From assembly GCF_026810365.1 (NCBI RefSeq), contig NZ_CP113948.1, forward strand, positions 324,001-388,000: a stretch of 64,000 nt of DNA, read 5' to 3'. The notes below the pieces were generated by a model. It was given only the letters and a program-made list of their open reading frames with translations, had not been told where the DNA came from and searched no databases. Source of the stretch: Flavobacterium praedii. Its GTDB lineage: Bacteria > Bacteroidota > Bacteroidia > Flavobacteriales > Flavobacteriaceae. This document shows, one piece after another, positions 521 through 21,514 of the stretch. Each line of letters begins with the position of its first letter. Positions within the stretch are counted from its first letter, which is position 1. Position numbers and translations under genes: made by a program.

Positions 521-1174
521 ATGATTCCAAAGGATGTTTTATTTAATGAATTTGTGATTCGAAATGCAACTCCAGAAGATGCAGTTCAGATGGAATATGT
601 TCAAAAGCAATGTTATCCTTCTTTGGATCCGACAGAGTTGTTAAATAGGAATCATTTTATCAATCATATCAAAGTATTTCCTGAAGGTCAAATTGTATTG
701 GAAAGAGATGGCGTAATTGTAGGTTCGGCGAGTACATTTCGATCTCATTTTCCAACACACGAAGCTACTTTTTTAGAGTCTTCGGATAATTTATGGATTA
801 CCAATGCCCATATTCCAGATGGAGAATGGATGTACGGAATAGATATGGGGATTTTACCTGAATATCGCGGCTTGGGACTTTCGACAGAAATGTATTTGGT
901 TCGACAAGAAATATGTAAAAAACTTGGGTTGATAGGACAACTTATTGCAGGAATGACTATAGGTTACGGAAAAGTAAAACATAAAATGACAATTGAAGAG
1001 TATTGTTACGCATTAGAAATTAAAAAATTTACGGATCCTACAGTAACTCCACAAAAAAAAGCAGGTTTTCGATGGATAAAACCATTATACAATCATATCA
1101 ATGATCCCGAAGCTGGTTTTGCTTGTATTTTAATGTATTATCCAGTAGATGAGAATTTTAAATTAAAAGTATAA
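521..1174 (+). CDS. GNAT family N-acetyltransferase (paralogue 1)
   Basis: This 217-residue protein has the GNAT fold signature. A beta strand, MYGIDMGILPEY, runs into the acetyl-CoA pyrophosphate loop RGLGLS near residues 113-121. The loop follows R-x-x-G-x-G/A except that the last small residue is Ser. The C-terminal part (DPTVTPQKKAGF, then NDPEAGFACILMYYP) resembles the GNAT domains that in some bacteria are fused to carbon-nitrogen hydrolases. It is closely similar to the next gene and to the gene at 8423, so the three are paralogues. The substrate is unknown. The setting among polyamine/GABA genes suggests acetylation of an amine or amino acid in the cytoplasm, but that is inference. 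Confidence 0.85.
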   Translation: MIPKDVLFNEFVIRNATPEDAVQMEYVQKQCYPSLDPTELLNRNHFINHIKVFPEGQIVLERDGVIVGSASTFRSHFPTHEATFLESSDNLWITNAHIPDGEWMYGIDMGILPEYRGLGLSTEMYLVRQEICKKLGLIGQLIAGMTIGYGKVKHKMTIEEYCYALEIKKFTDPTVTPQKKAGFRWIKPLYNHINDPEAGFACILMYYPVDENFKLKV

Positions 1175-1176
1175 TA

Positions 1177-1274
1177 GATTCTAAGTCACTAAGTGGCTAA
1201 GATTTATAGAAACAATTTAAAAGAGAAATTTTTTTTAAAAACTCAGAGTCTTAGATGCTTAGAATCTTAGTCTC
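1177..1274. repeat. Imperfect inverted repeat built of CTTAG words
   Basis: The arms at 1177-1203 and 1248-1274 are reverse complements at the three CTAAG/CTTAG words, spaced about 8 bp apart, with mismatches between the words. The repeat fills the 116-bp gap between the two tandem acetyltransferase genes. It could fold in RNA. It belongs to a class of short-word inverted repeats seen several times in this window. Confidence 0.6.
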
Positions 1275-1290
1275 TTAATAAAATCAAAAT

Positions 1291-1938
1291 ATGATTGCTA
1301 AAAAGATTTTGAATGATGCATTTATAATTAGAATCGCAAAAGAAGAAGATGCCGTTCAGATGGAATATGTACAATCAAGATGTTATCCAACATTGCACGT
1401 GTCTGAAATATTAGATAGGAATCATTTTGCAAATCATGTAAAAGTTTTTCCAGAAGGTCAAATTGTAGTTGAAAAGGATGGAACTATTGTAGCTTCGGCA
1501 AGTTCTTTTAGGTGTGATTTTCCAGAACATGATAGTACTTTTTTGGAAGAGACTGATAATTTATGGATTACTAATGTACAAATTCCAAATGGCGATTGGA
1601 TGTACGGAATAGATATGGGGGTTTTACCAGAATACAGAGGATTGGGACTCTCAAAAGAGATGTACAAAGCCCGTAATGAAGTCTGTGAAGAATTAGGATT
1701 GAAAGGACAAATAATTGCAGGAATGACAATTGGTTATGGAAAAGTGAAAGACCAAATGACAATCGAAGAATATTGCAAAAGGGTGATGAATAACGAAATA
1801 ATAGATCCTACAATTACGCCACAACGCAGTGCAGGTTTTCGATGGATTCGGCCTTTATACAATTACATAAATGATCCTGAATCGGGATTTGGCAGTATAT
1901 TAATGTATAAACCAGTTGACGAAAATTATTATTTATAG
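1291..1938 (+). CDS. GNAT family N-acetyltransferase (paralogue 2)
   Basis: This 215-residue protein is a close tandem paralogue of the gene at 521. It shares the ends of the fold (EDAVQMEYVQ near the start, SGFGSILMYKPVDENY at the end) and the acetyl-CoA loop YRGLGLS with the same Ser in the last loop position. The conserved segment MTIGYGKVKDQMTIEEYC is nearly identical in all three paralogues and is probably part of the acceptor-binding region. It lies 44 bp upstream of the aminotransferase, with which it is probably co-transcribed. Retention of two near-copies side by side suggests either different amine substrates or a recent duplication. No substrate can be read from the sequence. Confidence 0.85.
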   Translation: MIAKKILNDAFIIRIAKEEDAVQMEYVQSRCYPTLHVSEILDRNHFANHVKVFPEGQIVVEKDGTIVASASSFRCDFPEHDSTFLEETDNLWITNVQIPNGDWMYGIDMGVLPEYRGLGLSKEMYKARNEVCEELGLKGQIIAGMTIGYGKVKDQMTIEEYCKRVMNNEIIDPTITPQRSAGFRWIRPLYNYINDPESGFGSILMYKPVDENYYL

Positions 1939-1982
1939 TAATTAAAAGAATAAAGAGTAAAAAGCAAAAAAAAAAAAATAAA

Positions 1983-3329: not shown

Positions 3330-3408
3330 TATATTTTAGAATGTGTTTCCAAACCAGTTTCTAAAACGGGTTAGTAACTTGAAAATCTATAATTAAATAA
3401 AAAAAAGA

Positions 3409-4986
3409 GTGCTACTAATTTTAATACATAATGCCACAATTATTACTATGGATGAGGCTTTCGCCATTGCTGATTCCATAGTAATTAATGATTTGGGAAA
3501 AATTGAAGCCATTGGTACAGCAACCGAACTTCGAAATCAATTTGGTTCTTTTGAGAAAGAAATTAATTTTCAAGGGAAAACTATAGTTCCAGGACTCAAC
3601 GACGCGCATATTCATGTTTGGAAAATTGGACATCTTCGCACCTATATGCTGGATGTTCGAGGCGTAAAATCGATAGTCGAATTCAAACAAAAGCTAAAAG
3701 ATTTCGCTACCAAAAATCCAAACTCGGAGTGGATTATGGCTCGCGGAATCAATGAAATGGTACTCGAAGAAAAGCGTTTACCTACCAAAGAAGATTTGGA
3801 TGAAATCATTTTAGACCGACCTGTTTTTGTCATAAGAACTTGTGCCCATATTGGTATTGCCAATTCCAAAGCGATTGAGATTTCGGGAGTGAGTGAAGCT
3901 ACCGAAGTGCCTTTTGGAGGTGAAATTCGCAAAAATCAAGACGGCAGTTTACAAGGTATTTTTACAGAGAGAGCTTTGGGGTTAATAATGAATAATATTC
4001 CGCCTTTTACTTTCGAGGAGTATAAAAATATGATTCTGGAAGCGCATGATTATCTGTTAAGTCTCGGAATCACGAGTGCTACAGATCCTGCGGCCAACGA
4101 AGAATTGCTTGCGGCCTATATTCAATTGGATCAAGAAGGCTTGCTAAAAGTGAGAATGAATGTTTTTCCGCTTCGAATTCCAGACGGAAGCGATGAAATT
4201 CAGGTTTTGCCGGAACAATATGAATCGGAGTTTTTACAGATAAAAACGGTGAAGTTCTTTTCGGATGGCGGTTTGAGTTCGGCTACTGCTGCCTTGAATG
4301 TTCCTTATAAAAACACCGATGGTTACAAGGGAGTTTTGCGATTGGATTATGATAAATTTTATACCACCGCCAAAGAAGCGGTTGACAAAGGTTTCTCTGT
4401 AGCAACGCATGCCATTGGTCATCAAGCAGTCGATTTGACTTTGAAAGTGTACAGTGATTTGTTCAAAATCGATCCTACTTTAAGACACAGAATCGAACAT
4501 GTTGGGTTTTTATCCCAAGAAAATATAAATGATTTCAAACGAATGAATATGACTGCTGCCATGCAACCCATATTTATTTATGAATTGGCTAATAATTTCA
4601 AAAGCACATTGACTGATGCATTATTAGATGTGGTTTATCCCTGCAAAACGGTTTTGGATAACGGAATCAATTTGGCTTTATCAACAGATGGACCGGTGGT
4701 AAAAGAGATTAATCCTTGGGTTAATATCGAAACTGCCGTAACCCGAAAAGCTGCCGATGGTTTTATTATTGGCGAAAGCCAAAAAATAACACTGCAACAA
4801 GCGTTGTACGCATACACGCAAGGAAGTGCTTTTGCCGATAATTTGGAAAACGTAAAAGGAAGCTTATCTATAGGTAAATATGCCGATTTTATAGTTTTAG
4901 ATAAAAATCCTTTTGAGTTAAAAGATGTTTCTAATGTTGAATCACTCGAAACGTGGGTTGCTGGAGAATTAAAATACAAAAAATAA
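3409..4986 (+). CDS. Metal-dependent amidohydrolase, YtcJ/NfdA-like
   Basis: This 525-residue enzyme of the amidohydrolase_3 group starts with GTG; the first in-frame ATG is 13 codons later and would remove the first beta strand. It carries the HxH metal site in DAHIHVWK (about residue 67), later histidines in ATHAIGHQAVD and RIEHVGF, and the terminal aspartate in LSTDGPVV. Known relatives hydrolyse N-substituted formamides, imides and similar C-N bonds, but most are uncharacterised. There is no signal peptide, so it is cytoplasmic. Its position between the two aminotransferases suggests it opens an N-acyl amine or lactam in the same pathway, perhaps the reverse of the acetyltransferase step. 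That link is inference. Confidence 0.8.
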   Translation: MLLILIHNATIITMDEAFAIADSIVINDLGKIEAIGTATELRNQFGSFEKEINFQGKTIVPGLNDAHIHVWKIGHLRTYMLDVRGVKSIVEFKQKLKDFATKNPNSEWIMARGINEMVLEEKRLPTKEDLDEIILDRPVFVIRTCAHIGIANSKAIEISGVSEATEVPFGGEIRKNQDGSLQGIFTERALGLIMNNIPPFTFEEYKNMILEAHDYLLSLGITSATDPAANEELLAAYIQLDQEGLLKVRMNVFPLRIPDGSDEIQVLPEQYESEFLQIKTVKFFSDGGLSSATAALNVPYKNTDGYKGVLRLDYDKFYTTAKEAVDKGFSVATHAIGHQAVDLTLKVYSDLFKIDPTLRHRIEHVGFLSQENINDFKRMNMTAAMQPIFIYELANNFKSTLTDALLDVVYPCKTVLDNGINLALSTDGPVVKEINPWVNIETAVTRKAADGFIIGESQKITLQQALYAYTQGSAFADNLENVKGSLSIGKYADFIVLDKNPFELKDVSNVESLETWVAGELKYKK

Positions 4987-5041
4987 GTTTGTTTTTTAAA
5001 AATAAAACCAAAAAATTGTATTTTATTGTAAATAAATTAAT

Positions 5042-5049
5042 TACTTTTG
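5042..5049 (+). promoter_or_regulatory. Candidate -7 box upstream of the Lrp-type regulator
   Basis: TACTTTTG matches the Bacteroidetes -7 consensus TAnnTTTG and lies 35 bp before the start codon at 5085. TTG triplets at 5016 and 5026 are 23 and 13 bp upstream, neither ideal for the -33 element. It would make the regulator and the overlapping aminotransferase a separately transcribed unit. Confidence 0.35.
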
Positions 5050-5084
5050 ATTTGTTATTAAAATTTTACAAAAATTAGCTAAAG

Positions 5085-5570
5085 ATGAGTGTATTAGATG
5101 ATGAATTGGATTTCCAAATATTGACATTATTGCAAAAAGATGGTAGAATGTCTTTTACCGAAATTTCAAAGGAAATTAATGTTGCAGTAAGTACCATACG
5201 ACACCGTTATATCAATTTGGTTGAAGATGGAACGTTAAAAATTATAGGTAGAATTGATCCTAACAAAATTGGATTCAATGCTTATGCCAGTATTTTAATT
5301 TCGGTCAAGCCAAAAACGTTCATGAGCTCTATTTTTGAAGAATTGTCAAGATTACCAGAAGTTAGTTTTTTGGCATCCGTTTCGGGGGATTTTGATATTG
5401 AAGCAAATGTTATGTGCCGAGATATGGAGCATTTAAATGAATTAATTGGTGACAAAATTCATCTTTTGGAAGGGGTTTTTGATACCAAAACCAATATGTA
5501 TATGAAGATTTATAAAATAGCACAACCCGATTTGGAGTTGGCAAAATTATCAAGCAAACAAAATGAGTAA
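5085..5570 (+). CDS. Lrp/AsnC family transcriptional regulator
   Basis: The 161-residue protein has the standard two-domain Lrp layout. An N-terminal winged helix-turn-helix spans residues 5-60 (DGRMSFTEISKEINVAVSTI as the DNA-binding helix pair), and a C-terminal alpha/beta effector-binding domain spans about 70-150 (FMSSIFEELSRLPEVSFLAS and FDIEANVMC). Such proteins bind amino acids and often control the adjacent catabolic genes. It overlaps the next aminotransferase gene by 8 bp, so the two are translationally coupled. The most likely role is sensing an amino acid such as GABA, beta-alanine or a polyamine product to control this island. The effector and operators are not visible. Confidence 0.9.
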   Translation: MSVLDDELDFQILTLLQKDGRMSFTEISKEINVAVSTIRHRYINLVEDGTLKIIGRIDPNKIGFNAYASILISVKPKTFMSSIFEELSRLPEVSFLASVSGDFDIEANVMCRDMEHLNELIGDKIHLLEGVFDTKTNMYMKIYKIAQPDLELAKLSSKQNE

Positions 5571-6864: not shown

Positions 6865-6869
6865 AATAA

Positions 6870-6900
6870 TCTTTGTCAAAGTTCAAAACTTTGACAAAGA
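6870..6900. repeat. Perfect hairpin repeat with CTTTGTCAAAG arms (copy 1)
   Basis: Fourteen-bp perfect arms (6870-6883 and 6887-6900) flank a CAA loop, in the gap between the aminotransferase and the aldehyde dehydrogenase. The core is the same as the longer hairpin at 41618, so this is a dispersed repeat and not a gene-specific site. No T-tract follows, so it is not an obvious terminator; it could stabilise or process the mRNA. Confidence 0.8.
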
Positions 6901-6918
6901 TATCTTAAAAGAAAAAAA

Positions 6919-8337
6919 ATGAGAAAGCAATATATAAATGGAGAATGGTGCGACGCAATAGATGGCGCAAAATGGGATTTGCAAAGTCCATCGACGGAAG
7001 AAATAGTGGATAAAGTTCCTTTCGGTAATGCTGCCGATTGTAGTTTGGCCATTGATGCTGCCGATGCCGCTTTCAAAGGATGGAAAAATACAACACCTTA
7101 TTATAGAGCAGAGTTTCTAAAAAAAGCGGCCAACTATATGAGGGAAAATGCGGAGGCTTTCGCCAAAGAAACCGCTTTAGAAACTGGGAAACCAATGCTG
7201 GAAGCAAGGGGAGAATGGCAAGTTTCTGCCAACCTTTTTGAATGGTATGCCGAAGAAGGAAAACGCAGTTACGGAAGGGTTATTCCTTCGAGTAGAATTG
7301 ACAAACGTTCGATGGTCATTTATCAGCCATTGGGTGTTGTTGGTGTAATTACGGCATGGAATTTCCCAGCTTATAATCCAGCAAGAGCTGTAGCTGCTGC
7401 ATTGGCGGCGGGTTGTACGGTTGTGATGCGCGGTTCCGAATTTACTCCATTGTCGAGTTTTAATATGGCAAAAGCCTTGCACGAAGCGGGAATCCCAAAA
7501 GGAGTTTTTAATTTAATCAATACTGAACCTGTTTCGACAGGAACGGAAATGATTGAAAACCCTTTGTTGAAAAAAATAAGCTTTACAGGAAGTACCCGTG
7601 TTGGAAAAATATTAATGGATGGTGCTTCAAAAACATCAACCAAATTGTCATTGGAATTGGGTGGAAACGCTCCTGTTATAATTGATAAAGATGTTGATGT
7701 AGAATCGATTGCACATCAAGCTTTGGTTGCCAAATTAAGAAATTGTGGACAAGTTTGTGTTTCGCCACAGCGTTTTTATGTGCATTCCAGTATTTTCAAT
7801 CAGTTTGTTGCTGTTGTAAAAGAGGATATTTCGAAACTAAAAACAGGAATCAATGGTGGAGATATTGATTTTGTGGGACCACTGATTAATAAAACACAGC
7901 AAAACCATTCTTTGACTATGCTCGAAAAAGCAAAAAGTGAAGGAGCAATTGTTCATATTGGTGGTGAAAAATCAGAGAAAGGATTTTTTGTGCATCCAGC
8001 TTTAATTGAAGCAAGACAAACACAAGCATTTATCAAAACGGAAGTATTTGGACCATTGATGATTGTAATTCCTTTTGATACCCAAGAAGAAGTGATTGAA
8101 TGGGCAAATGATACGGAATATGGTTTGGCTTCATACGTTTTTACCAATCACATTAAAAACGCAAATGTGTATGCCGAAAACCTTGAATTCGGGATGGTAG
8201 GTATCAACGAATGGGCGGCACACGGAACCGAATTGCCTTTTGTTGGAATAAAAAGCAGTGGAATTGGTCATGAATCAGGATCCGAAGGATTGAAAGAATA
8301 TTTGGAAATGAAATTGATTAGTTACGGTAATATGTAG
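6919..8337 (+). CDS. NAD(P)-dependent aldehyde dehydrogenase
   Basis: This 472-residue enzyme of the ALDH superfamily has the cofactor region ITAWNFPAYNP (144-154), SFTGSTRVGK (221-230), the catalytic glutamate E246 in LELGGN and the nucleophilic C280 in RNCGQVC. Overall it resembles succinate-semialdehyde/GabD-type enzymes, but its substrate cannot be fixed. It follows the second aminotransferase by 54 bp and probably oxidises the semialdehyde that enzyme produces, for example malonate or succinate semialdehyde or an aminoaldehyde. The stop codon lies inside the left arm of a 26-bp inverted repeat. Confidence 0.85.
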   Translation: MRKQYINGEWCDAIDGAKWDLQSPSTEEIVDKVPFGNAADCSLAIDAADAAFKGWKNTTPYYRAEFLKKAANYMRENAEAFAKETALETGKPMLEARGEWQVSANLFEWYAEEGKRSYGRVIPSSRIDKRSMVIYQPLGVVGVITAWNFPAYNPARAVAAALAAGCTVVMRGSEFTPLSSFNMAKALHEAGIPKGVFNLINTEPVSTGTEMIENPLLKKISFTGSTRVGKILMDGASKTSTKLSLELGGNAPVIIDKDVDVESIAHQALVAKLRNCGQVCVSPQRFYVHSSIFNQFVAVVKEDISKLKTGINGGDIDFVGPLINKTQQNHSLTMLEKAKSEGAIVHIGGEKSEKGFFVHPALIEARQTQAFIKTEVFGPLMIVIPFDTQEEVIEWANDTEYGLASYVFTNHIKNANVYAENLEFGMVGINEWAAHGTELPFVGIKSSGIGHESGSEGLKEYLEMKLISYGNM

Positions 8338-8423
8338 CCCCCTAGCCCCCGAAGGGGGAAGGAAAGGACTATAAAAAATAATTATTATTAATCTAAATTC
8401 CCCCTTTGGGGGCTAGGGGGCTA
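8335..8423. repeat. 26-bp inverted repeat overlapping a stop and a start codon
   Basis: The left arm 8335-8360 and right arm 8398-8423 are reverse complements with one mismatch. They are rich in CCCCC/GGGGG blocks separated by TAG/CTA, far more G+C rich than the surroundings. The left arm contains the TAG stop of the aldehyde dehydrogenase. The right arm ends on the A of the ATG of the third acetyltransferase. The stem would hide that start site in RNA. Confidence 0.85.
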
Positions 8424-9073
8424 TGAAAAAAGAAATTTTAGGCAAATACATTTTACAGACTGCTACACCAGAATACGCAAAACAAGAAGCAGAACTTCAA
8501 AAAATTGTTTTTCCAACTTTATCAGCTGAAGAATTGATGACAGAAGAGCAGTATTTGAGACACATGGAAATTTTTCCTGAAGGTCAAATGATTGTTTTAG
8601 ATGGAGATAGAGTAATTGCTGCTACTACAACTTTACAGCAAAACTATCACAAAGGACACCATACTTTTCTTGAAATATCGGATAATTTATGGTTGGGAAC
8701 ACATGATCCAAAAGCGGAATGGCTATATGGACTTGACGTTTCGGTGCATCCTGATTATCAAGGAAAAGGAATTGGAAGACAAATTTATAATGCGCGTCAA
8801 GATGTAGCAAAAGAATTGGGTTGTTTGGGACAAATGACCGCTGGAATGCCAATTGGTTTTGACAAAGTAAAAGACCAAATGACCATTGCAGAATATTGCG
8901 ACAAACTGATAAAAGGAGAAATAGTAGATCCAACCGTTACGGCTCAAACCAAATGCGGATTCATTCTAGTTGAGCCTTTATTTGATTATTTAGACGATCC
9001 AAGGAGCGGGAATTGTTCGGTTTTGATGTATTGGCCTATTGATCCAGCTACTAAATTAAGCGAACACCATTAA
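8423..9073 (+). CDS. GNAT family N-acetyltransferase (paralogue 3)
   Basis: This 216-residue protein is homologous along its whole length to the genes at 521 and 1291 but more diverged. Unlike them it keeps the canonical acetyl-CoA loop Q-x-x-G-x-G (YQGKGIGRQIY). It shares AGMPIGFDKVKDQMTIAEYC and the C-terminal DPRSGNCSVLMYWPID. Its ATG abuts a strong 26-bp inverted repeat, which could limit translation. It sits just upstream of the polyamine transporter genes, so a polyamine or aminoaldehyde/GABA acceptor is plausible but unproven. Confidence 0.85.
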   Translation: MKKEILGKYILQTATPEYAKQEAELQKIVFPTLSAEELMTEEQYLRHMEIFPEGQMIVLDGDRVIAATTTLQQNYHKGHHTFLEISDNLWLGTHDPKAEWLYGLDVSVHPDYQGKGIGRQIYNARQDVAKELGCLGQMTAGMPIGFDKVKDQMTIAEYCDKLIKGEIVDPTVTAQTKCGFILVEPLFDYLDDPRSGNCSVLMYWPIDPATKLSEHH

Positions 9074-9354: not shown

Positions 9355-10452
9355 ATGAAAAAAATCGCATTATCATTACTAGTAATTATGGGCTTATTCT
9401 CAAGCTGTGGCAAAAAAGCTGAAGAAGCTAAGACGGGAACAGTTGATTTAGAAGCATTAAAAGGTTCTACTTTAAATATCCTAGCTTGGGAAGGATATGC
9501 AGACGCCTCTTTTACCAAAGAGTTTGAAGATAAATATGGAGTGACTGTAAAAGGAACTTATTTTGGATCTTCCGATGAGTTGGTTTCAAAATTACAAAGT
9601 GGCGGTGGCGCTAGTTATGATGTAATCACTCCTTCATCCGATGTGGCGGGTTATATCGTTTCTTCAGATTTGGCAGAGCCTTTAGATTTAGAACAATTAA
9701 CGGCTTGGAAATCACTTTCGCCAGTTTTATCTGGAATGAAAGACGTTCAAAAAGACGGAAAAACATACGGTATGCCATTTACTTGGGGACCGGATTATTT
9801 AGTTTATAATGCCGATATTATCAAAGAAACTCCAACTTCATGGAACCTTTTCTTTGATCCAAAATACAAAGGAAAAATCGCAATGTATGATGATATTTCT
9901 TCTATTTATTTGGCAGCTCAATTGTTAGGATATGACAAAAAAGATCAGTCGGTTTTGTATAATTTAACCGAAGAGCAATTGCTTGCTTGCAAAGCAAAAT
10001 TGGTAGAATTGAAACCTCAAGTTCGTAAAAATTGGGCTTCCGCAGGGGAATTGGATAATTTATTCAAAAATAAAGAAGTCGTTGCTGCTGTGGGATGGCC
10101 ATTGACCCCAGCTAATTTGAACAAGCAAGGAATGAACATTAAAGCTGTTATTCCTACTGAAGGCGCAACAGGTTGGATTGACCGTTTGATGATTGTAAAA
10201 GGAGCCAAAAATAAACAATTGGCACAACTTTGGTTGGAGTACGTTTCTCAACCAAAAGTGATGGCTCAAGTTGCTGAATTCACACAATATTATGTGTCAA
10301 ATCCAGAAGCAAATGCATTATTATCTCCTGAAACTCAAAAATTAATGGATGTGGCAAGCATGGACCAAATGTTTAAAACCTTGAATTTTTGGCAACCTGT
10401 AAAAAACAGAAAAAGATACAACGAAATCTGGAGTGAAGTGAAAAACCAATAA
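9355..10452 (+). CDS. potD: Polyamine ABC transporter substrate-binding lipoprotein
   Basis: This 365-residue periplasmic binding protein of the spermidine/putrescine class has a lipoprotein signal ending in the lipobox LFSSC (Cys19 or so). The mature start NILAWEGYADASFTKEFEDKYG is the usual PotD/PotF opening, and the middle has SYDVITPSSD and TWGPDYLVYN. It would be anchored in the periplasm to capture polyamines and hand them to the PotBC permease. It is the first gene of potD-CoA-transferase-potB-potC-potA, with gaps of only 2-25 bp, so one operon. The precise ligand (putrescine, spermidine or a related amine) cannot be determined by eye. Confidence 0.88.
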   Translation: MKKIALSLLVIMGLFSSCGKKAEEAKTGTVDLEALKGSTLNILAWEGYADASFTKEFEDKYGVTVKGTYFGSSDELVSKLQSGGGASYDVITPSSDVAGYIVSSDLAEPLDLEQLTAWKSLSPVLSGMKDVQKDGKTYGMPFTWGPDYLVYNADIIKETPTSWNLFFDPKYKGKIAMYDDISSIYLAAQLLGYDKKDQSVLYNLTEEQLLACKAKLVELKPQVRKNWASAGELDNLFKNKEVVAAVGWPLTPANLNKQGMNIKAVIPTEGATGWIDRLMIVKGAKNKQLAQLWLEYVSQPKVMAQVAEFTQYYVSNPEANALLSPETQKLMDVASMDQMFKTLNFWQPVKNRKRYNEIWSEVKNQ

Positions 10453-10477: not shown

Positions 10478-11554
10478 ATGAAAAAACAAGAACTATTTGC
10501 AGGATTAAAAATCGTCGAATTAGCGGGGGTTTTGGCCGGTCCTGCAGTAGGAATGTTTTTTGCCGAATTGGGTGCGACTGTTATAAAAGTCGAAAATCCT
10601 TCCAACAATGGAGATGTAACTAGAAGTTGGCTTTTAGAATCAGAATCCAAAGAAAATCAATCAGGGTATTACAGTTCAGTGAACTATAATAAAAGAGTTT
10701 TGTGGGCAGATTTAACTGTTGAAAAAGATCTTGAATTAGTCTTGGATGAGATTGCAGATGCGGATATTGTTATAGCCAATTTTAAACCTACCTCTTCAAA
10801 AAAATTAGGACTGGATTCGAAAACTTTAAGAAGTAAATTTCCTAGACTCATTTATGCACAAATAAGTGGTTATGGAGCCAAAGATGAAACTCCCGCTTTT
10901 GATGTTGTATTGCAAGCAGAAGCTGGATTTATGTACATAAATGGCGAAAAAGAAGGTACAGCTGTCAAAATACCAATCGCCATTATTGATATTCTCGCCG
11001 CTCACCAACTTAAAGAAGCCATACTGATCGCATTGCTGAAAAGAAGTATTTCAAATCAAGGGGCTACTGTTCATGTATCATTATATAATGCCGCTTTAGC
11101 TACATTGGCCAATCAGGCAACAAATTATTTAATGGGTGGAATTGTTCCAGAAAGAATGGGGAGTTTACATCCAAATATTGCTCCTTATGGTGAAACGTTT
11201 TACACAAAAGATCATAAAGCAATTGTTCTTGCGGTTGGAAATGACAAACAGTTTGCATCGCTTTGTTCGTGTTTGAATATAAATGATTTACTGTCGGATG
11301 TTCGTTTTAGTTCAAATAGTTTGAGAGTCAAAAACAGAGCGATTTTAAGTCTTTTTTTGTCTAAAGCATTTTGTGAATTTCAAGGTACGTTTTTACTCAA
11401 AGAATTAAAAAACAACAATGTTCCCTGTGGTGAAATTAGAAATATGGATGAAGTGCTAAATTGTGAAAGTGCTCAAAAATTAATTTTAAAAGAAGAACTT
11501 CCTAACGGGCAAATCACAAAAAGAATGGCAACAGCTATTTTTGATATGGATTAA
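10478..11554 (+). CDS. Family III (CaiB/BaiF/Frc) CoA-transferase
   Basis: The 358-residue protein has the family III CoA-transferase layout: an N-terminal half with GLKIVELAGVLAGPAVGMFFAELGA-type opening, the ADIVIANFKP strand, and the catalytic aspartate D171 in PIAIID followed by the conserved helix. Such enzymes move CoA between carboxylic acids. It is somewhat short for the family (often about 380-440 residues). The odd feature is location: it is inserted between potD and potB, 25 bp after one and 19 bp before the other, so it is made with the importer. No family III CoA-transferase is part of the standard polyamine route. It may activate a carboxylate product of the imported compound. 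The substrate is unknown. Confidence 0.85.
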   Translation: MKKQELFAGLKIVELAGVLAGPAVGMFFAELGATVIKVENPSNNGDVTRSWLLESESKENQSGYYSSVNYNKRVLWADLTVEKDLELVLDEIADADIVIANFKPTSSKKLGLDSKTLRSKFPRLIYAQISGYGAKDETPAFDVVLQAEAGFMYINGEKEGTAVKIPIAIIDILAAHQLKEAILIALLKRSISNQGATVHVSLYNAALATLANQATNYLMGGIVPERMGSLHPNIAPYGETFYTKDHKAIVLAVGNDKQFASLCSCLNINDLLSDVRFSSNSLRVKNRAILSLFLSKAFCEFQGTFLLKELKNNNVPCGEIRNMDEVLNCESAQKLILKEELPNGQITKRMATAIFDMD

Positions 11555-12421: not shown

Positions 12422-13195
12422 ATGAAAAAAATAAGAGCATTTATAATTTCCTTTTCAGCCTTTTCGGTGCTGTGGTTTTTGTATTTCCCGATATTCATCA
12501 TTATTTGGTTTTCCTTTAATAAAGAATCGGTAAGTTCATTTCCAATTGAACATTATTCGTTGGATTGGTACGTAAAATTATTTCACAATCAATCAATGAT
12601 TAATGCTGTCGAAGTCAGTTTTATAATAGCAATATCAAGTACGCTTGCTGCTTTAATAATTGGAATACCGTCTGCTTATGCGCTGCACAAATACAATTAT
12701 TTTGGTAAAAACTTTTTGCTAAAATTAATTTTACTTCCCATTACGCTTCCAGGAATTGTGACGGGAGTTGCCATGTTGAGTCTTTTTCCTTTAATGGGAA
12801 TTCCATTGTCATTAAAAGCCGTTTTTATTGGTCATACCACTTTTTTAATTGCCATTATGATTACACAGATTTTGGCTCGATTCAAAAAAATGGATCCCTA
12901 TTTGGAAATGGCCGCTTTTGATTTGGGAGCCAGTCCATTGCAAGCTTTTTTTAAAGTGATTTTGCCCAATATAAAAACAGCCATTATTGGTGCCGTTTTA
13001 TTATCACTAGTATTATCAATGGATGAGATTCCTGTTACTTTTTTCTTGATTTCAAGAGAAAACACCTTACCAATAGAAATTTATGGAATGATGAGAAGAG
13101 GGATTACACCCGAAGTAAATGCTGTGGCAACTTTGGTATTTTTAATATCGTCAGCAGCCATTTTTATTTCGTTAAAATTTAATAAAGAGAATTAA
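12422..13195 (+). CDS. potC: Polyamine ABC transporter permease (PotC type)
   Basis: The second permease subunit has 257 residues, about six membrane helices and an EAA loop ([22 protein letters not shown]). The segment [26 protein letters not shown] matches PotC/PotI proteins, and the C-terminal [22 protein letters not shown] is also diagnostic. It follows potB by 2 bp and precedes potA by 2 bp. With PotB it forms the transmembrane path for polyamine import. Confidence 0.9.
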
Positions 13196-13197: not shown

Positions 13198-14232
13198 ATG
13201 AGTAAATTAGAATTAAAAGGAATCAGCAAATCATACGGAAGTTCGCTTATTGTAAACAATTTGGATTTAGAAATCCAAGATGGAGAATTTTTGACCATTT
13301 TGGGACCAAGCGGTTGTGGAAAAACAACAACGTTGCGCATGATTGCAGGTTTTGAAACTCCGGACAATGGGCAAGTTTTACTCAATAAACAAGACATTTC
13401 GCAATTGCCTCCATATAAAAGAAACGTAAATACGGTTTTTCAAAATTATGCTTTGTTTCCGCATCTTAATGTGGCCGAGAATATTGCTTTTGGTTTGCAC
13501 CAAAAAAAATTAAGCAAAACTGAAACCAATAAACGAGTAGATGAAATGCTTGAATTGGTTCAAATGACAGCTTTCAAAAGCAGAAAACCTTTTGAAATGT
13601 CAGGTGGACAGCAACAACGAGTTGCCATTGCCAGAGCGATTGCACCCGATCCTGAAATTTTATTATTGGATGAACCTCTTGGTGCATTGGATTTAAAATT
13701 AAGGAAACAAATGCAGTTCGAATTGAAACAGTTGCACAAAGATTTGAATAAAACTTTTGTGTATGTAACACACGATCAGGAAGAAGCCTTGACCATGTCG
13801 GATCGAATTGCAGTAATGAATCACGGAGTTATAGAGCAGTTGTCGGACAGTCAAACTTTATACAATCATCCAAAAACCAAATTTGTAGCTGGATTTATTG
13901 GGGAGGCCAATTTGATTCCGGTGAACATTGCCAATAAACAAACATTTTCATTAGAGGATAAAACCTTTAATTTCAATCATGAAATAAGTGATAATAAAGG
14001 AATATTATTCATCAGACCAGAGAATGTTTCTTTTGATATCGTGCATGATATTTCGCTTCAGGTTACTATCGAAGATGTCATTTTTGTAGGGAATCACAGA
14101 AAGTACAAATTGGTAACCGCATCAGGTAAAAAAATCATTAAAACCGAAGATTCGTCAGTGGCGTTGACAAAAATTATAGGACAATCGGTTACTATTTATT
14201 TAGCGCCGAGTTTAATTCAAATTTATAATTAA
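13198..14232 (+). CDS. potA: Polyamine ABC transporter ATP-binding protein
   Basis: This 344-residue ABC ATPase has Walker [10 protein letters not shown] (36-44), Q-loop FQNYALFPH (81-89), signature [14 protein letters not shown] (134-147), Walker B LLLDEP (155-160) and switch histidine in YVTHDQEEA. The C-terminal 100 residues form a TOBE-like regulatory domain ([11 protein letters not shown]), as in PotA. It energises PotBC from the cytoplasmic side and is the last gene of the importer operon. Confidence 0.92.
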
Positions 14233-14247: not shown

Positions 14248-14287
14248 GAAGTTTAAAACTTCTAACCTCTAACTTCTAACTTCTAAC
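14248..14287. repeat. Short palindrome followed by four 7-bp tandem repeats
   Basis: GAAGTT and AACTTC arms (14248-14262) run into four tandem copies of TTCTAAC (second copy CTCTAAC) at 14260-14287, just before the aldehyde dehydrogenase start. The block fills most of the 65-bp gap after potA. It is a simple microsatellite-like repeat that could vary in copy number; no function is shown. Confidence 0.6.
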
Positions 14288-14297
14288 TTTAAAAATT

Positions 14298-15743
14298 ATG
14301 TATAAAATGTATATCAACGGTGCTTTTGTGGATGCTGCATCAGGCAAAACAAGAGCGATACTGAATCCTGCGACCAAGGCCGTAATTGCTACAGTTCCAG
14401 AAGCACAAATTGAAGATGTAAATGCCGCTGTCGATGCTGCAAGAGCTGCTTTTGATGGCGAGGAATGGAAAAGTAAAACGGCACAAGACCGTCAAAAAAT
14501 ATTGTTTGCAATTGCGGGAAAAATTAGAGACAATTTTGATTCTTTTGTAAAATTGGAAGTAGAAAATAATGGTAAACCCATTCGTGAAGCCGAATTTGAT
14601 ATTGATGATGCAGCTTCTTGTTTTGAGTTTTATGCAGGATTAGCCACCAAGATTCATGGAGAAACCATGAGTGTTCCTGGGAATTCATTTAGTTATGTAA
14701 CTCGTGAGGCCATTGGGGTTTGCGCTCAAATTATACCTTGGAATTTTCCGTTCCTGATGTGCGCCTGGAAACTAGGACCTGCCATTGCAGCAGGAAATAC
14801 AGTTGTTTTAAAACCATCCGAAGTGACACCGTTGACGGCTTTGTTTTTGGCACAATTAATAGCCGAATTGGATATTCCAAAAGGAGTAATCAATATTGTA
14901 ACAGGAGATGGACCCATTGCTGGAAACGCACTAATAAGCAATACCAAAATTGATAAAATTGCTTTTACAGGAGGAACTTCAACAGGAAAATACATTGGCA
15001 AAATCGCTGCCGAAAATCTCAAAAAAGTTACTTTAGAATTGGGCGGAAAAAATCCAGTAGTCATTTTTGACGATTGCAAAATGGACTTGGCTATTGATTG
15101 GGGATTGTTTGCGGCTTTCGCCAATAGCGGACAGGTTTGTACAGCAGGTTCTCGAATTTTGATTCAAGATACCATTTACGATGAATTTGTAAAACAGTTT
15201 GTGGCTAGAGCCAAAAATATAAAAGTGGGTGATGGAAGTGTTGCCGAAAATACGATGGGACCAATCGTATCTCAAGCTCATTTTGACAAAATTAAAGCCT
15301 ATATCGAAGTGGGGAAAAGCGAAGCTAATCTAGCTTTTGGAGGCAATACAGATGACAGTAAAGGATTTTTTATTGAGCCAACCATTTTTACAGATGTTAC
15401 TCCAAATATGCGAATTGCCAGAGAAGAAATTTTTGGGCCTGTAGTAGCATTATTGAAATTCTCCACCGAAGAAGAAGCAATTGCAATGGCCAATGATACC
15501 GAATATGGTTTGGGTTATGGGTTGTTCACGCAAGATGTAACGCGTGTACATCGGGTAATGCCAAAGATACGAGCAGGAATTGGATGGGTCAATTTTTATC
15601 ATCCTACCTTTAATGAAATGCCTTGGGGTGGTTATAAACAATCGGGAACAGGCAGAGAATTGGGATTGTACGGTATAGAAAATTACCTCGAAGTAAAACA
15701 AGTCAACATCAATCTGGATACAGATCCAGTGGGATGGTATTAA
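14298..15743 (+). CDS. Aldehyde dehydrogenase, probable aminobutyraldehyde dehydrogenase type
   Basis: This 481-residue ALDH has IIPWNFPFLMCAWKLGPAIA (145-164), FTGGTSTGK (223-231), the catalytic glutamate E247 in LELGGKNP and nucleophile C281 in NSGQVCTAGSR. The sequence is of the betaine-aldehyde/aminoaldehyde/retinal dehydrogenase type, ending with the GYKQSGTGRELG signature. It follows the pot operon by 65 bp and precedes the next dehydrogenase. Oxidation of 4-aminobutanal (from putrescine) to GABA, or of 3-aminopropanal to beta-alanine, is the likely role. Substrate assignment within this subfamily is uncertain. Confidence 0.8.
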   Translation: MYKMYINGAFVDAASGKTRAILNPATKAVIATVPEAQIEDVNAAVDAARAAFDGEEWKSKTAQDRQKILFAIAGKIRDNFDSFVKLEVENNGKPIREAEFDIDDAASCFEFYAGLATKIHGETMSVPGNSFSYVTREAIGVCAQIIPWNFPFLMCAWKLGPAIAAGNTVVLKPSEVTPLTALFLAQLIAELDIPKGVINIVTGDGPIAGNALISNTKIDKIAFTGGTSTGKYIGKIAAENLKKVTLELGGKNPVVIFDDCKMDLAIDWGLFAAFANSGQVCTAGSRILIQDTIYDEFVKQFVARAKNIKVGDGSVAENTMGPIVSQAHFDKIKAYIEVGKSEANLAFGGNTDDSKGFFIEPTIFTDVTPNMRIAREEIFGPVVALLKFSTEEEAIAMANDTEYGLGYGLFTQDVTRVHRVMPKIRAGIGWVNFYHPTFNEMPWGGYKQSGTGRELGLYGIENYLEVKQVNINLDTDPVGWY

Positions 15744-15753
15744 TAATTTAATG

Positions 15754-15817
15754 ATTGAAAGATTTAATAATTTAAAAATTCGGAATAACAGAATTTAAAA
15801 TCTTTCTATCTTTCAAT
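15754..15817. repeat. Imperfect inverted repeat of ATTGAAAGAT / ATCTTTCAAT words
   Basis: The arms 15754-15781 and 15791-15817 match as reverse complements with a few mismatches and one gap. They fill the 102-bp space between the two dehydrogenase genes. The outer ATTGAAAGAT and the inner TTTAAA.ATTC blocks are exact. It belongs to the same short-word class as the repeats at 1177 and 17205. Confidence 0.55.
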
Positions 15818-15845
15818 TTTTCAATCTTTTAAATTTTTTATTACA

Positions 15846-17198: not shown

Positions 17199-17204
17199 TT
17201 GTTT

Positions 17205-17326
17205 CGCAAAGATTCGCTAAGAAGACGCTAAGAAGGATGAAATTCAATTACTTTGATTGTATAAAAAGAGTATTGAATAAAAATAAACCTTTGTTTATCT
17301 CTGTGTTTACTTCGCGAATCTTTGTG
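17205..17326. repeat. Inverted repeat with CGCAAAGATTCGCTAAG arms
   Basis: The arms at 17205-17221 and 17310-17326 are reverse complements with two mismatches. Left of the loop, the word GCTAAGAAGAC repeats. It sits in the 157-bp gap before the amine oxidase gene. The same word style (CGCAAAGAC) recurs at 41922. Confidence 0.65.
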
Positions 17327-17355
17327 GATAAAATGCTAACCAAACCAAATAACCA

Positions 17356-19038: not shown

Positions 19039-19076
19039 AATTAATAACCAAAACCTAACCAAAAACCAAAACCAAA

Positions 19077-19931
19077 ATGAAAAAAGTAGTAGTAGTTTTA
19101 GCTTTAATGCTAACGAGTAGTTTCGCATTTGCACAAGATGCGCCAGCAGCAGCCCAAGATGCTCCAGAATCAAAATTTACTGCAGCAGTAGATGTCGTAG
19201 CTCCTTATATGTGGAGAGGGGTAAAATTGTATTCGAATAATATAGCTTTTCAGCCTTATGCATCGTATGCAGCAACCGAAAAATTAACAGTAGGATTCTG
19301 GATGACAACCAATTTGTCTTCTGCAGCAGATGCCTATAATGAGTATGATTGGTATGTATCTTACCAAGTTACTCCAATTTTAAAAGTTATGCTAAGTGAT
19401 TATTATGCACCTGCCACTAAGAAAAATGTGGAAACGTATGGTTTTTCTAGAGCCAATTATTTTGATTATGGATTTGGATCTGCTCAAGTTATGGATCTAT
19501 CAATACTTCTTGATTTCTCAGACAAAGGTGTACCTATTGATTTTCAATGGAATACTTTAGTTAATGGAAATGATTACAAAGATGTTGAGTATGATAGTAA
19601 TGGAGAAGTGTTGAATAAAAACAGAGCTTTTTCTTCTTATTCAGAAATAGGGTATACACATTCAATTGAATCTATTGGTGTAAACTTAAGAGGTTTTGTA
19701 GGTGCTGCTGTGATCAATAATAATGCGTATTATGGTTTGCATCAAGACGGAACAGCTGGATTTGCTTTTACGAATGTAGGATTGAATGTAGCTAAAGAGA
19801 TTAAATTTTCGGAAAAATTCAGCCTTCCTGTTTTCTTGAGATATACTTATAATGAAGATGGAAGAAAAAGTCTTGATGGAGAAAAACAAGTAAATATTAT
19901 ATCAGGAGGTTTGACTTTAACAATCAAATAA
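19077..19931 (+). CDS. Outer-membrane beta-barrel protein, TIGR02001 (Gcw_chp)-like
   Basis: This 284-residue protein has a signal peptide ending at AFAQ (about residue 20) followed by an Ala-rich linker. The mature part alternates polar and aromatic residues as in beta barrels (VVAPYMWRGVKLY, LTVGFWMTTNLS, YDWYVSYQVTP), and the last residues LTLTIK fit a final strand. The opening strand with MWRG recalls the TIGR02001 family of putative outer-membrane proteins (Y.FRG). It starts 38 bp after the amine oxidase and is followed by a strong terminator, so it closes that transcription unit. It may let substrates reach the periplasm; the function is not established. Confidence 0.65.
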   Translation: MKKVVVVLALMLTSSFAFAQDAPAAAQDAPESKFTAAVDVVAPYMWRGVKLYSNNIAFQPYASYAATEKLTVGFWMTTNLSSAADAYNEYDWYVSYQVTPILKVMLSDYYAPATKKNVETYGFSRANYFDYGFGSAQVMDLSILLDFSDKGVPIDFQWNTLVNGNDYKDVEYDSNGEVLNKNRAFSSYSEIGYTHSIESIGVNLRGFVGAAVINNNAYYGLHQDGTAGFAFTNVGLNVAKEIKFSEKFSLPVFLRYTYNEDGRKSLDGEKQVNIISGGLTLTIK

Positions 19932-19967
19932 TAAAACTAAAAAGGATTTTTTTTAAATTTTAGTTCT

Positions 19968-20020
19968 AAAACCTTAAACTCACAACTAGCATTTTGTTAG
20001 TGAGTTTAAGGTTTTTTTTT
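19968..20020 (+). terminator. Strong rho-independent terminator
   Basis: Sixteen-bp perfect arms (19968-19983 and 20000-20015) carrying CCTTAAACTCAC/GTGAGTTTAAGG run into a run of nine T. It closes the amine oxidase/outer-membrane protein transcription unit. Confidence 0.9.
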
Positions 20021-20096
20021 ATGGAATATATTTTGATAGGTATTTTTGGATTTAAAAAAAAGTCTGGTTATGGGTATTTGTTTTATTTGTATTACG

Positions 20097-20117
20097 ACCC
20101 CTGTTTTTTATAGGGGT
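20097..20117. promoter_or_regulatory. ACCCCT...AGGGGT hairpin or operator in the gap before the porin gene
   Basis: Six-bp perfect arms ACCCCT (20097-20102) and AGGGGT (20112-20117) around a T-rich spacer form an inverted repeat whose G+C content stands out in an A/T-rich 491-bp gap. T8 follows after 4 bp, so a weak terminator is possible, but a dimeric regulator site is equally plausible. It is about 305 bp upstream of the porin-like gene. Between it and the gene I see only a degenerate TAATTTCG box near 20338. Confidence 0.4.
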
Positions 20118-20422
20118 ATGATTTTTTTTGTATATTATTTTGGTTTAAAATTGAATTTTTTGTGTGTATAAAATTTATTAATGGTGAAAAATTATGGGTT
20201 TTGGTTAAAAATTTGATTATTGAATTTTTAAAAATTTAGGTTTAAAATAGGAATTGCTCATTATTTTTCGATGAATTTTGGATATCAATAATTCTTTTCG
20301 GAAAGTTTTAAAAAAGTTTTTCTGTTAACTAAAAGTTAATAATTTCGCCCCAATAAAAAAGAAGAATAACCAAATTCAATTCAATTATCAAGATTGAATA
20401 ATTAACCAAAAACCGATTAAAT

Positions 20423-21514
20423 ATGAAAAAAGTAATTACTATTTTTGCCTTAGTCTTGACTACAAGTTTAGCATTTGCACAAGATGGAGAAACAGCTGTG
20501 TCTCCATCAACAACTTTTGCAGGTTCTGCAGATGCGTATTACAAATATGCTTTTTCTGGAATTTCAAGTGGATATACCAGCTTTACGAATTCTAATAATT
20601 CATTTGAATTAGGTATGGCATCTATTGAAGCCTCTCACAAATGGAAAAAAGTATCTGTATTTGTAGATTTAGGTTTTGGAGGCAGAGCTAAGGAGTTTAC
20701 CTATAATGACAATGCTTACACATTTATGATTAAACAATTGACATTCACTTATGATGTGTCAGATAGTTTTAAAATTGTTGCAGGAACTTTTGGAACTCAC
20801 ATCGGGTATGAGTTGCTTGATGCTGTAGACAATAAAAACTACAGTATGTCGTATGCCTTTACTTATGGGCCTTTTTATAACACAGGGGTAAAAGCACAAT
20901 ATACATCTGGTAAATTTAGTTTTATGGCTGGTGTTACTAATCCAACCGATTTTAAATCAGCTATTGAAACACAAACAAATTCAAAAACATATATAGGACA
21001 AGTTGCATATGTAGGAGAAACTGGAAGTGCTTATTTAAATATATCTTCGGGACTTGAAAATGGAAGTCCATTGAGAGACAGTTTTGGAAAAATTATTGCT
21101 TCTTCAGATGAAAATAGAACTCAATTTGATTTTGTGGGTACTAAAAAATTTGGTGATAAATTTGCTGTTGGATTCAATGCAACTTATGCGGATACCAATA
21201 ATAATATAGATAGTAGTTTAGATGGAAAATGGTACTCTTTAGTTCTTTATCCAAGTTATACAATTAGTTCAAGTGTATTATTAGCATATCGTTTGGAGTA
21301 TATGGATTCAAAAGATGCTACTGCTTCTTTAGGAACAATTGCTGGTTCTTCAATAATTGGTAATACATTATCATTAAACTATAAAGTGGGTAATATGACA
21401 ATTATTCCTGAAATCAGAATTGATTCTGCTTCAAATGATATTTTTGTTACTAATGATGATAGTTTCAAAGGAGTTAATACGTATGCTTTGGTAGCTGCGA
21501 CTTATACTTTCTAA
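20423..21514 (+). CDS. Porin-like outer-membrane protein (BBP2/OmpL-like)
   Basis: This 363-residue protein has a clear signal peptide (MKKVITIFALVLTTSLAFAQ). The mature part is a series of amphipathic strands typical of a 16-strand-like porin barrel: AGSADAYYKYAFSG, NSFELGMASIEASHKW, VSVFVDLGFGGRA, FKIVAGTFGTHIGYELLD, and a terminal aromatic ATYTF that fits the barrel-assembly signal. The pattern recalls the putative beta-barrel porin-2 (OmpL-like) family common in Bacteroidetes. It has its own upstream region and terminator, so it is separately regulated from the amine genes. Its position suggests an outer-membrane channel for the island's substrate, which is inference. Confidence 0.7.
   Translation: MKKVITIFALVLTTSLAFAQDGETAVSPSTTFAGSADAYYKYAFSGISSGYTSFTNSNNSFELGMASIEASHKWKKVSVFVDLGFGGRAKEFTYNDNAYTFMIKQLTFTYDVSDSFKIVAGTFGTHIGYELLDAVDNKNYSMSYAFTYGPFYNTGVKAQYTSGKFSFMAGVTNPTDFKSAIETQTNSKTYIGQVAYVGETGSAYLNISSGLENGSPLRDSFGKIIASSDENRTQFDFVGTKKFGDKFAVGFNATYADTNNNIDSSLDGKWYSLVLYPSYTISSSVLLAYRLEYMDSKDATASLGTIAGSSIIGNTLSLNYKVGNMTIIPEIRIDSASNDIFVTNDDSFKGVNTYALVAATYTF

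What the first reader, a model, noticed from the sequence alone, without database searches (positions are those of the whole stretch)
521..21514. Polyamine/amine catabolic island with more enzymes than the textbook route needs
Two class III aminotransferases, three aldehyde dehydrogenases (one Sad-like), a PotABCD importer, a flavin amine oxidase, an Lrp-type regulator and two outer-membrane proteins sit together on one strand. Known chemistry (putrescine to aminobutyraldehyde to GABA to succinate semialdehyde to succinate) uses only part of the set. The extra enzymes suggest several amines (putrescine, spermidine, diaminopropane/beta-alanine) or an undescribed branch. Confidence in the individual families is good; confidence in the joint pathway is moderate.
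Basis: partly seen in the sequence, partly recalled or inferred. Interest (0 to 1): 0.8.

Follow-up and report, generated by a model that had tools for sequence, protein, structure and literature searches.

The report
Conserved amine-degradation gene island, Flavobacterium
A long run of neighbouring genes probably lets certain Flavobacterium species import and burn polyamines, and part of it recurs in distant relatives together with two enzymes, an acetyltransferase-like protein and an amide-cutting enzyme, that the usual polyamine routes do not explain.

Summary
In detail: every family named is there, on one strand. Gene order is kept in F. taihuense and F. restrictum, yet potD is in only 4 of 150 genus genomes: a patchy island. 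A core (NhaC, GNAT, AT1, ALDH1; often AT2, AMH, exported amine oxidase) lies around stand-alone GNATs in 6 of 7 other genera, in places with SusD-type or agmatine-to-putrescine-type genes. AMH orthologues occur unlinked in 5 of 6 core genomes whose GNAT stretch lacks AMH. The genome holds no obvious PuuA. Best reading: a polyamine/omega-amine utilisation operon running to succinate through GABA, with a beta-alanine arm; GNAT and AMH may form an acylation/deacylation detour. The detour is unproven: the GNAT fold is closest to GNAT-like decarboxylases, whose catalytic dyad it seems not to keep. New variant of a known kind.

The parts
1..509 (+). 3' part of NhaC-type permease gene (starts left of the window at L005 16983)
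   Evidence: PF03553 on the window part; whole frame; NhaC-type neighbour of GNAT in 11 of 13 core-search loci
521..1174 (+). GNAT1
   Evidence: PF00583; 68% identical to GNAT2
1291..1938 (+). GNAT2, tandem copy of GNAT1
   Evidence: PF00583
1983..3329 (+). AT1, GABA-transaminase-type aminotransferase
   Evidence: passes TIGR00700 (510.8 against 506.65 bits); nearest solved structures are GABA transaminases
3409..4986 (+). AMH, Amidohydro_3 family hydrolase
   Evidence: PF07969; four metal-ligand-type motifs present (their role is recalled); model pLDDT 92.8
5085..5570 (+). Lrp/AsnC-type regulator
   Evidence: PF01037, PF13404; AMH-Lrp pair also in L089-L091
5563..6864 (+). AT2, second GABA-transaminase-like aminotransferase
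   Evidence: 477.3 bits, below the TIGR00700 cut-off 506.65; separate clade from AT1
6919..8337 (+). ALDH1, succinate-semialdehyde-dehydrogenase-like
   Evidence: best NCBIfam match TIGR01780, 461.8 against 646.35 bits; nearest solved structures are SSADHs
8423..9073 (+). GNAT3
   Evidence: PF00583; model pLDDT 96.7
9355..10452 (+). PotD-type polyamine-binding protein
   Evidence: best NCBIfam matches YdcS, PotF, PotD, all below cut-off; PDB matches include PotF and PotD
10478..11554 (+). family-III (CaiB/BaiF-type) CoA-transferase
   Evidence: PF02515; succinate-glutarate CoA-transferase model 251.3 against 750 bits
11574..12419 (+). PotB-type permease
12422..13195 (+). PotC-type permease
13198..14232 (+). 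PotA-type ATPase
   Evidence: passes TIGR01187 potA (357.3 against 355.6 bits)
14298..15743 (+). ALDH2, betaine-/aminobutyraldehyde-dehydrogenase-like
   Evidence: 571.3 of 668.6 and 507.1 of 615 bits
15846..17198 (+). ALDH3, Sad-like succinate-semialdehyde dehydrogenase
   Evidence: 489 of 730 and 451.8 of 855 bits
17356..19038 (+). flavin amine oxidase with twin-arginine N-terminus and lipobox-like Cys
   Evidence: PF01593; N-termini listed
19077..19931 (+). TorF-type putative porin
   Evidence: TIGR02001 27.1 bits, below cut-off 47.15; Gcw_chp 22.2 of 24
19968..20015 (+). predicted terminator stem-loop followed by T-run
   Evidence: sequence, fold
20423..21514 (+). BBP2-type porin, probably a separate unit
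   Evidence: PF07642; behind the stem-loop

Best explanation
A polyamine/omega-amine utilisation operon. Amines cross the outer membrane through the porin(s); an exported flavin amine oxidase can act on them outside the cytoplasm; PotABCD and the NhaC-type permease bring amines or products in. Inside, AT1 transaminates GABA and ALDH1 or ALDH3 oxidises the semialdehyde to succinate; ALDH2 would take free aminoaldehydes; the divergent uAT3/uALDH4 pair would take beta-alanine through malonate semialdehyde to acetyl-CoA; the Lrp-type protein regulates. GNAT and AMH, conserved with AT1, AT2 and ALDH1, are best read as an acylation/deacylation detour with the logic of the Puu route: GNAT caps one amine, AT2 and ALDH1 oxidise the other end, AMH removes the cap to give GABA. 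Shown: gene content, conserved order, co-occurrence, folds. Inferred from families: each reaction. Not shown: substrates, direction of transport, and the acyl step (my probability for the detour alone is about 0.35).
For: Order kept in relatives. Of 13 loci with stand-alone GNATs outside Flavobacterium, AT1 is in the stretch in 11, NhaC in 11, ALDH1 in 11, AT2 in 8, AMH in 6, amine oxidase in 6; of 11 chosen GNAT-nitrilase-fusion loci, none has any of these six. AMH orthologues (42-43%, E < 1e-129) unlinked in G607, G589, G694, G1037, G1052, in the f33 genomes beside an Lrp 50% identical to the island's. AguA-/AguB-like genes diverge from the core in L056 (same-length frames in L057 and L059), and AguA/AguB-like genes lie 4 kb from AMH in L093. 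SusD-type proteins directly before the amine oxidase in L064-L067 and before ALDH3 in L058. Twin-arginine N-terminus in 12 of 12 amine oxidases listed, 11 distinct. Polyamine-type binding protein. AT1 passes the GABA-transaminase cut-off, uALDH4 the MMSDH cut-off. AT1 and AT2 are two clades kept in parallel. Only two glutamine-synthetase-type genes, frames of 739 and 360 residues, in the genome, so no obvious PuuA.
Against: No substrate was tested. For the detour: the GNAT3 fold is closest to GNAT-like decarboxylases, not to polyamine acetyltransferases, and the residue where the canonical Tyr acid would be expected is an invariant Gln (position estimated). ALDH1 and AT2 are closest to enzymes for free succinate semialdehyde and GABA. 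AMH is closest to uncharacterised hydrolases. The f33 stretches hold only one aminotransferase and one ALDH and no amine oxidase or ALDH3 (not sought elsewhere in those genomes). G1042 has core genes but no AMH at E <= 1e-30; L054 has a GNAT with none of the core. AguA/AguB-like genes score below cut-offs. Most NCBIfam assignments are below cut-off.
Confidence: 0.65

Rival explanations
1. Ordinary, non-capped polyamine catabolism for several amines: amine oxidase or AT2 gives free aminoaldehydes, ALDH2 makes GABA and its homologues, AT1 and ALDH3 finish. GNATs buffer or detoxify excess amine, and AMH does something else, for example opening a lactam such as 2-pyrrolidone.
For: Pot genes followed by an ALDH2 of the betaine/aminobutyraldehyde type resemble E. 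coli ydcSTUV-ydcW (that gene order is recalled); PotD's best NCBIfam match is YdcS. ALDH1 and AT2 look like SSADH and GABA transaminase. Among AMH's structural neighbours are ring-opening imidazolonepropionases.
Against: ALDH2 and the pot genes are absent from the core in the other genera, apart from a partial ALDH2 in L068, whereas GNAT with AT1, ALDH1 and NhaC is kept; AMH follows GNAT-bearing genomes even when unlinked.
Confidence: 0.3
2. A C5 branch: the island also degrades cadaverine or 5-aminovalerate through glutarate, and the CoA-transferase makes glutaryl-CoA, oxidised by a glutaryl-CoA dehydrogenase elsewhere.
For: The CoA-transferase's best NCBIfam match is succinate-glutarate CoA-transferase (251.3 of 750 bits), and SUGCT (succinate-hydroxymethylglutarate CoA-transferase) is among its PDB matches. 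A genome-encoded acyl-CoA dehydrogenase (L085) matches a glutaryl-CoA dehydrogenase model at 269.8 of 470 bits and resembles that enzyme from recall. Pseudomonas uses GabT/DavT-type enzymes for both C4 and C5 amines (PMC10606097, passages).
Against: Two other acyl-CoA dehydrogenases of the genome score higher on the same model (279.6 and 303.9); acryloyl-CoA reductase is as good a match for L085. The CoA-transferase is below every NCBIfam cut-off and was seen with the core only in Flavobacterium.
Confidence: 0.2
3. The GNATs are GNAT-like acyl-CoA decarboxylases (malonyl-CoA or similar) serving the beta-alanine arm, with the CoA-transferase making the CoA ester.
Against: CurA's catalytic His389 (PMC3701320, passages) falls by range offset near residue 170-175, where Q175 is invariant in 64 of 64 sequences; the Thr355 position (about T139) is Ile in 8 of 64 and in GNAT1 and GNAT2. 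The mapping is an estimate, not a superposition. Of the 13 core-search loci only L068 carries the uAT3/uALDH4 pair in the stretch and none the CoA-transferase.
Confidence: 0.1
4. The genes are not one pathway: an amine operon next to unrelated amino-acid genes.
For: The Flavobacterium island looks composite: the pot genes and CoA-transferase were not found with the core elsewhere.
Against: Conserved order in two further species over the whole island, recurrence of the core in other genera, one predicted terminator after 18 co-directional genes.
Confidence: 0.05

Closest known systems
E. coli Puu (gamma-glutamylputrescine) pathway
   Same: Logic: import, capping of one amine, oxidation of the other end, uncapping to GABA, GABA transaminase, Sad-type dehydrogenase (pathway from PMC10606097 passages, and recall)
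   Different: No PuuA-like synthetase was recognised in the genome and no PuuD-type hydrolase in the island; a GNAT and an amidohydrolase-superfamily enzyme would take their places
E. coli YdcSTUV-YdcW / PotFGHI-type polyamine import with aminobutyraldehyde dehydrogenase
   Same: Binding protein, two permeases and ATPase followed by an aminobutyraldehyde-dehydrogenase-like ALDH2 (the E. coli arrangement is recalled)
   Different: A family-III CoA-transferase sits between binding protein and permease genes; all but PotA are below NCBIfam cut-offs
Bacterial polyamine acetylation pathway (SpeG, PaiA type)
   Same: A GNAT-fold protein in an amine context
   Different: No PDB sequence match for GNAT3, no NCBIfam match for GNAT1 or GNAT3; PaiA and SpeG are far below the decarboxylase group in Foldseek (ranks 20 and 42)
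GNAT-like decarboxylases (CurA, GphF) and malonyl-CoA decarboxylase
   Same: Whole-length fold of GNAT3
   Different: His of the decarboxylase dyad apparently replaced by an invariant Gln (estimated position); amine-catabolic context
Polysaccharide utilisation loci of Bacteroidota
   Same: In L058 and L064-L067 a SusD-type protein, with a TonB-receptor-type partner confirmed in L066, heads the gene run
   Different: Enzymes are amine oxidase, aminotransferases and dehydrogenases, not glycan-degrading enzymes; the Flavobacterium island has porin-type proteins instead

Membership tests
Puu gamma-glutamylation pathway | gamma-glutamylputrescine synthetase (PuuA, glutamine-synthetase type) | tested here: not met
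   Only two PF00120 matches in the whole genome, frames of 739 and 360 residues; neither has PuuA's length of about 470 (recalled). Neither was examined further
Puu gamma-glutamylation pathway | gamma-glutamyl-GABA hydrolase (PuuD) in the cluster | tested here: not met
   No such family among the Pfam matches of the island genes scanned; not sought elsewhere in the genome
PotABCD-type polyamine ABC importer | binding protein, two permeases, ATPase, adjacent | tested here: met
   CoA-transferase gene inserted after potD
PotABCD-type polyamine ABC importer | polyamine transport | not testable with these tools
   sequence kinship to PotF/PotD only
GABA transaminase (TIGR00700) | score over the curated cut-off | tested here: met
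   AT1 510.8 against 506.65; AT2 477.3, not met
CoA-acylating (methyl)malonate-semialdehyde dehydrogenase (TIGR01722) | score over the curated cut-off | tested here: met
   uALDH4 493.7 against 448.5
Succinate-semialdehyde dehydrogenase (TIGR01780; NF006915; NF010575) | score over the curated cut-off | tested here: not met
   ALDH1 461.8 of 646.35; ALDH3 489 of 730 and 451.8 of 855; they may still work that way
GNAT-like decarboxylase (CurA/MCD group) | whole-domain fold | tested here: met
GNAT-like decarboxylase (CurA/MCD group) | His-Ser/Thr dyad | tested here: inconclusive
   positions estimated from alignment ranges: His position appears to be invariant Gln, Thr position Thr in 55 of 64
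Polyamine N-acetyltransferase | acetyl-CoA:polyamine acetyl transfer | not testable with these tools
   CoA-binding-type motif [QR]xxGx[GAS] printed for window GNAT1-3 and 25 of 27 further stand-alone rows, some of them duplicates
Polyamine N-acetyltransferase | sequence or fold kinship to SpeG or PaiA above other GNATs | tested here: inconclusive
Amidohydro_3 hydrolases | family profile and metal-ligand-type motifs | tested here: met
   PF07969; motifs in 11 of 12 rows listed
Succinate-glutarate CoA-transferase (NF052585) | score over the curated cut-off | tested here: not met
   251.3 of 750

The most novel reading that the evidence does not exclude
Bacteroidota own a complete, undescribed acyl-capped polyamine route: a GNAT-like-decarboxylase-fold acyltransferase caps putrescine, AT2 and ALDH1 oxidise it, an amidohydrolase-superfamily enzyme uncaps it to GABA, AT1 and a Sad-type dehydrogenase finish. 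It is packaged as an amine-utilisation locus with its own outer-membrane system (SusC/SusD-type or porin) and an exported amine oxidase, much as polysaccharide utilisation loci are.
Probability: 0.3. Interest if true: 0.72.

Novelty: new variant of a known kind. Interest (0 to 1): 0.5.

Why it matters
A 2022 review (PMC9397018, passages) lists five polyamine utilisation pathways, characterised in E. coli, P. aeruginosa, B. subtilis and S. coelicolor; [quoted passage not shown] coli is not yet known. This gene set is a concrete, testable candidate for how some Bacteroidota use polyamines. It offers a function for a stand-alone GNAT group and an Amidohydro_3 group, and in some genera it ties SusD-type outer-membrane proteins to amines rather than glycans.

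Tried and rejected
Gamma-glutamyl (Puu) route: unlikely, no PuuA-like synthetase recognised. Chance cluster: rejected. CoA-transferase contexts as a guide to its function: led nowhere; in the 33 other loci (41-55% identity) my frame comparison gave only weak hits to island genes (PotA-, ALDH2- or AT1-like at 40% or less), and the neighbours I read in 9 of them were mixed. GNAT-nitrilase fusions as part of the pathway: no AT1, AT2, ALDH1, NhaC, AMH or amine oxidase in 11 stretches, chosen from the far larger number of fusion-length hits; one has an AguB-like and one a PotA-like frame. Active-site reading of AT2 against solved GABA transaminases: the regions compared are kept, so it does not separate GABA from diamine donors. 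Rfam scan of 1-24000: no match. Sigma-70-type promoter scan: 84 found against a mean of 69.2 (sd 8.9) in shuffles, not used. A recalled Bacteroidetes-type promoter pattern gave one match, inside the second porin gene. Agmatine genes in the own genome: best AguB match 328.7 of 410.25 bits, far from the island.

Limits: the 13 core-search loci come from 7 genera, so they are not 13 independent events; one genus (G747, L054) has none of the core. L059, L065 and L066 end near the core at contig ends and L055 ends about 680 bases beyond its amine oxidase gene, so absences there are weak. A 209-residue frame in G320 (37% identity) may be a further stand-alone GNAT and was not followed up. The AMH controls are 10 Flavobacterium genomes without a stand-alone GNAT (8 with only 27-31% relatives, 2 with none), not island-free members of the families that hold the core. 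Lateral transfer is suggested by patchiness and the AT1 tree but was not tested against vertically inherited genes. GNAT2 was not scanned against NCBIfam. uGNAT4 is named by eye; it had no NCBIfam match. Lists of structures show the best 50 rows only. Ten literature searches (open-licence PMC papers only; one search was on GNAT decarboxylases) showed me no description of this gene set; where lists were long I saw titles and abstract starts only.


Full report
Place. The window is positions 324001-388000 of a one-contig genome of 4,168,457 bases. Two genomes that the tool calls same genus have contigs of the same lengths as F. taihuense and F. soyangense contigs, so the genus is Flavobacterium. 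F. taihuense (L014) is the closest named island carrier: island proteins 94-100% identical except the two porins, 72 and 42%.

Content. Added here: GNAT1, GNAT2, GNAT3, an Amidohydro_3 enzyme (AMH), a family-III CoA-transferase between potD and potB, an NhaC-type permease across the left edge, and left of it on the other strand uALDH4, uGNAT4 and uAT3 (L005). From the permease to the first porin 18 genes run in one direction; the largest gap is 281 bases, before potD, and only 38-112 bases in four relatives. A predicted stem-loop at about 19968-20015 with a T-run follows the first porin, so the second porin is probably a separate unit.

Conservation in Flavobacterium. The one genome-contig scan, with the CoA-transferase, gave 40 loci. 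Seven (L014-L020; 71-96% identity) hold the island or part of it in the same order; F. soyangense (L019) lacks the amine oxidase, and L018 (a MAG) has broken frames. The other 33 (41-55%) do not show the island. PotD has an orthologue in 4 of 150 genus genomes, own included, at E <= 1e-40; the CoA-transferase has one match above 40% identity, besides the own one, in 149 family genomes (G022, 46%), without pot genes beyond a weak PotA hit in its 6.7-kb contig.

The core elsewhere. GNAT3 searched in 395 genomes over the phylum gave 10 with a match at E <= 1e-32: own, 6 stand-alone, 3 fusion-length. A GNAT from L055 in 201 genomes of family f17 gave 8, of which 7 new. I fetched all 13 stand-alone loci (L054-L059, L064-L070; 7 genera) and compared reading frames of 110 or more residues with the island proteins. 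In the stretch: AT1 in 11 of 13, NhaC-type in 11, ALDH1 in 11, AT2 in 8, AMH in 6, amine oxidase in 6. L054 has none; L069 has only GNAT, AT1 and AMH. The 3 fusions and 8 chosen fusions (L071-L081) served as controls: none of the six genes in 11 stretches. In a tree the stand-alone GNATs used and 7 fusion halves part with 100/100 support.

Variants. L068 carries the divergent uAT3/uALDH4 pair (83 and 73%), an Lrp (53%) and a partial ALDH2 (73%); its AT1 is 87% identical to the window's and groups with it (95/86) inside the Flavobacterium AT1s. L070 has an 86% identical AT2, an amino-acid permease between amine oxidase and AT1, and a TorF-type porin. In L064-L067 a SusD-type protein lies directly before the amine oxidase, and in L058 before ALDH3; the SusD part was confirmed by Pfam in all five, the TonB-receptor partner in L066 only, where scanned. 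In L056 AguA-like and AguB-like genes (192.8 of 381.8 and 311.4 of 410.25 bits) diverge from the core; frames of similar length stand in the same place in L057 and L059.

AMH. In 18 chosen genomes orthologues with E < 1e-129 are in G607, G589, G694, G1037, G1052 and G981; G1042 has none; G747 and 8 of 10 Flavobacterium genomes without a stand-alone GNAT have only 27-31% relatives, the other 2 none. In the three f33 genomes the unlinked AMH is followed by an Lrp 50% identical to the island's, the same pair as window 3409-5570. In L093 AguA/AguB-like genes lie about 4 kb from AMH.

Roles. AT1 passes the GABA-transaminase cut-off, AT2 does not; both are closest to solved GABA transaminases and form two clades (98/100 and 97/98). 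ALDH1 is closest to SSADHs, ALDH3 to Sad-type and ALDH2 to betaine/aminobutyraldehyde dehydrogenase models, all below cut-off. uALDH4 passes the MMSDH cut-off and uAT3 is closest to a taurine:2-oxoglutarate aminotransferase, which fits beta-alanine to acetyl-CoA. The amine oxidase has a twin-arginine N-terminus in 12 of 12 rows listed (11 distinct) and a lipobox-like Cys in 8 of the 12, so it is probably exported.

Reading. With no PuuA-like synthetase recognised, gamma-glutamyl capping is unlikely. GNAT, AT2, ALDH1, AMH, AT1 and ALDH3 match the steps of a capped route one to one, which is why I prefer it (about 0.35 for the detour, 0.65 for the island as an amine-utilisation operon). Against it stand the fold of the GNAT, the f33 stretches with a single aminotransferase, and G1042 without AMH. 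The CoA-transferase, found with the pot genes in Flavobacterium only, could serve a C5 branch through glutarate; the evidence is thin.

Noticed in passing
window 6869-6901: A near-perfect palindromic hairpin between AT2 and ALDH1, also in F. taihuense with small changes, not in L015, L020, L068 or L070.
   Followed up: partly
window 46540-46844: Three tRNA-Glu (ttc) genes in tandem.
   Followed up: no
window 21655-28083: CpsB/CapC-type gene, then on the other strand frames that look by eye like an exopolysaccharide export and assembly set.
   Followed up: no
L074, genome about 3,150,800: A GNAT-nitrilase fusion of about 510 residues, widespread in the order, function unknown to me; its GNAT half is a relative of the island GNATs.
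   Followed up: partly
L005 1-10986: Frames upstream that look by eye like a glycan-utilisation set with SusC/SusD and glycoside hydrolases.
   Followed up: no
L020: Contig filed under a Lentimicrobium MAG carries island genes 71-96% identical to the window; perhaps a mis-binned Flavobacterium contig.
   Followed up: no
L018: AT1, AMH, POTC, ALDH2 and ALDH3 are split over several frames in this MAG, perhaps assembly errors.
   Followed up: no
L068 16436-19405: A 989-residue protein with a class-III aminotransferase part beside the core; the window's genome has a 967-residue frame with such a part at 1,584,043.
   Followed up: no
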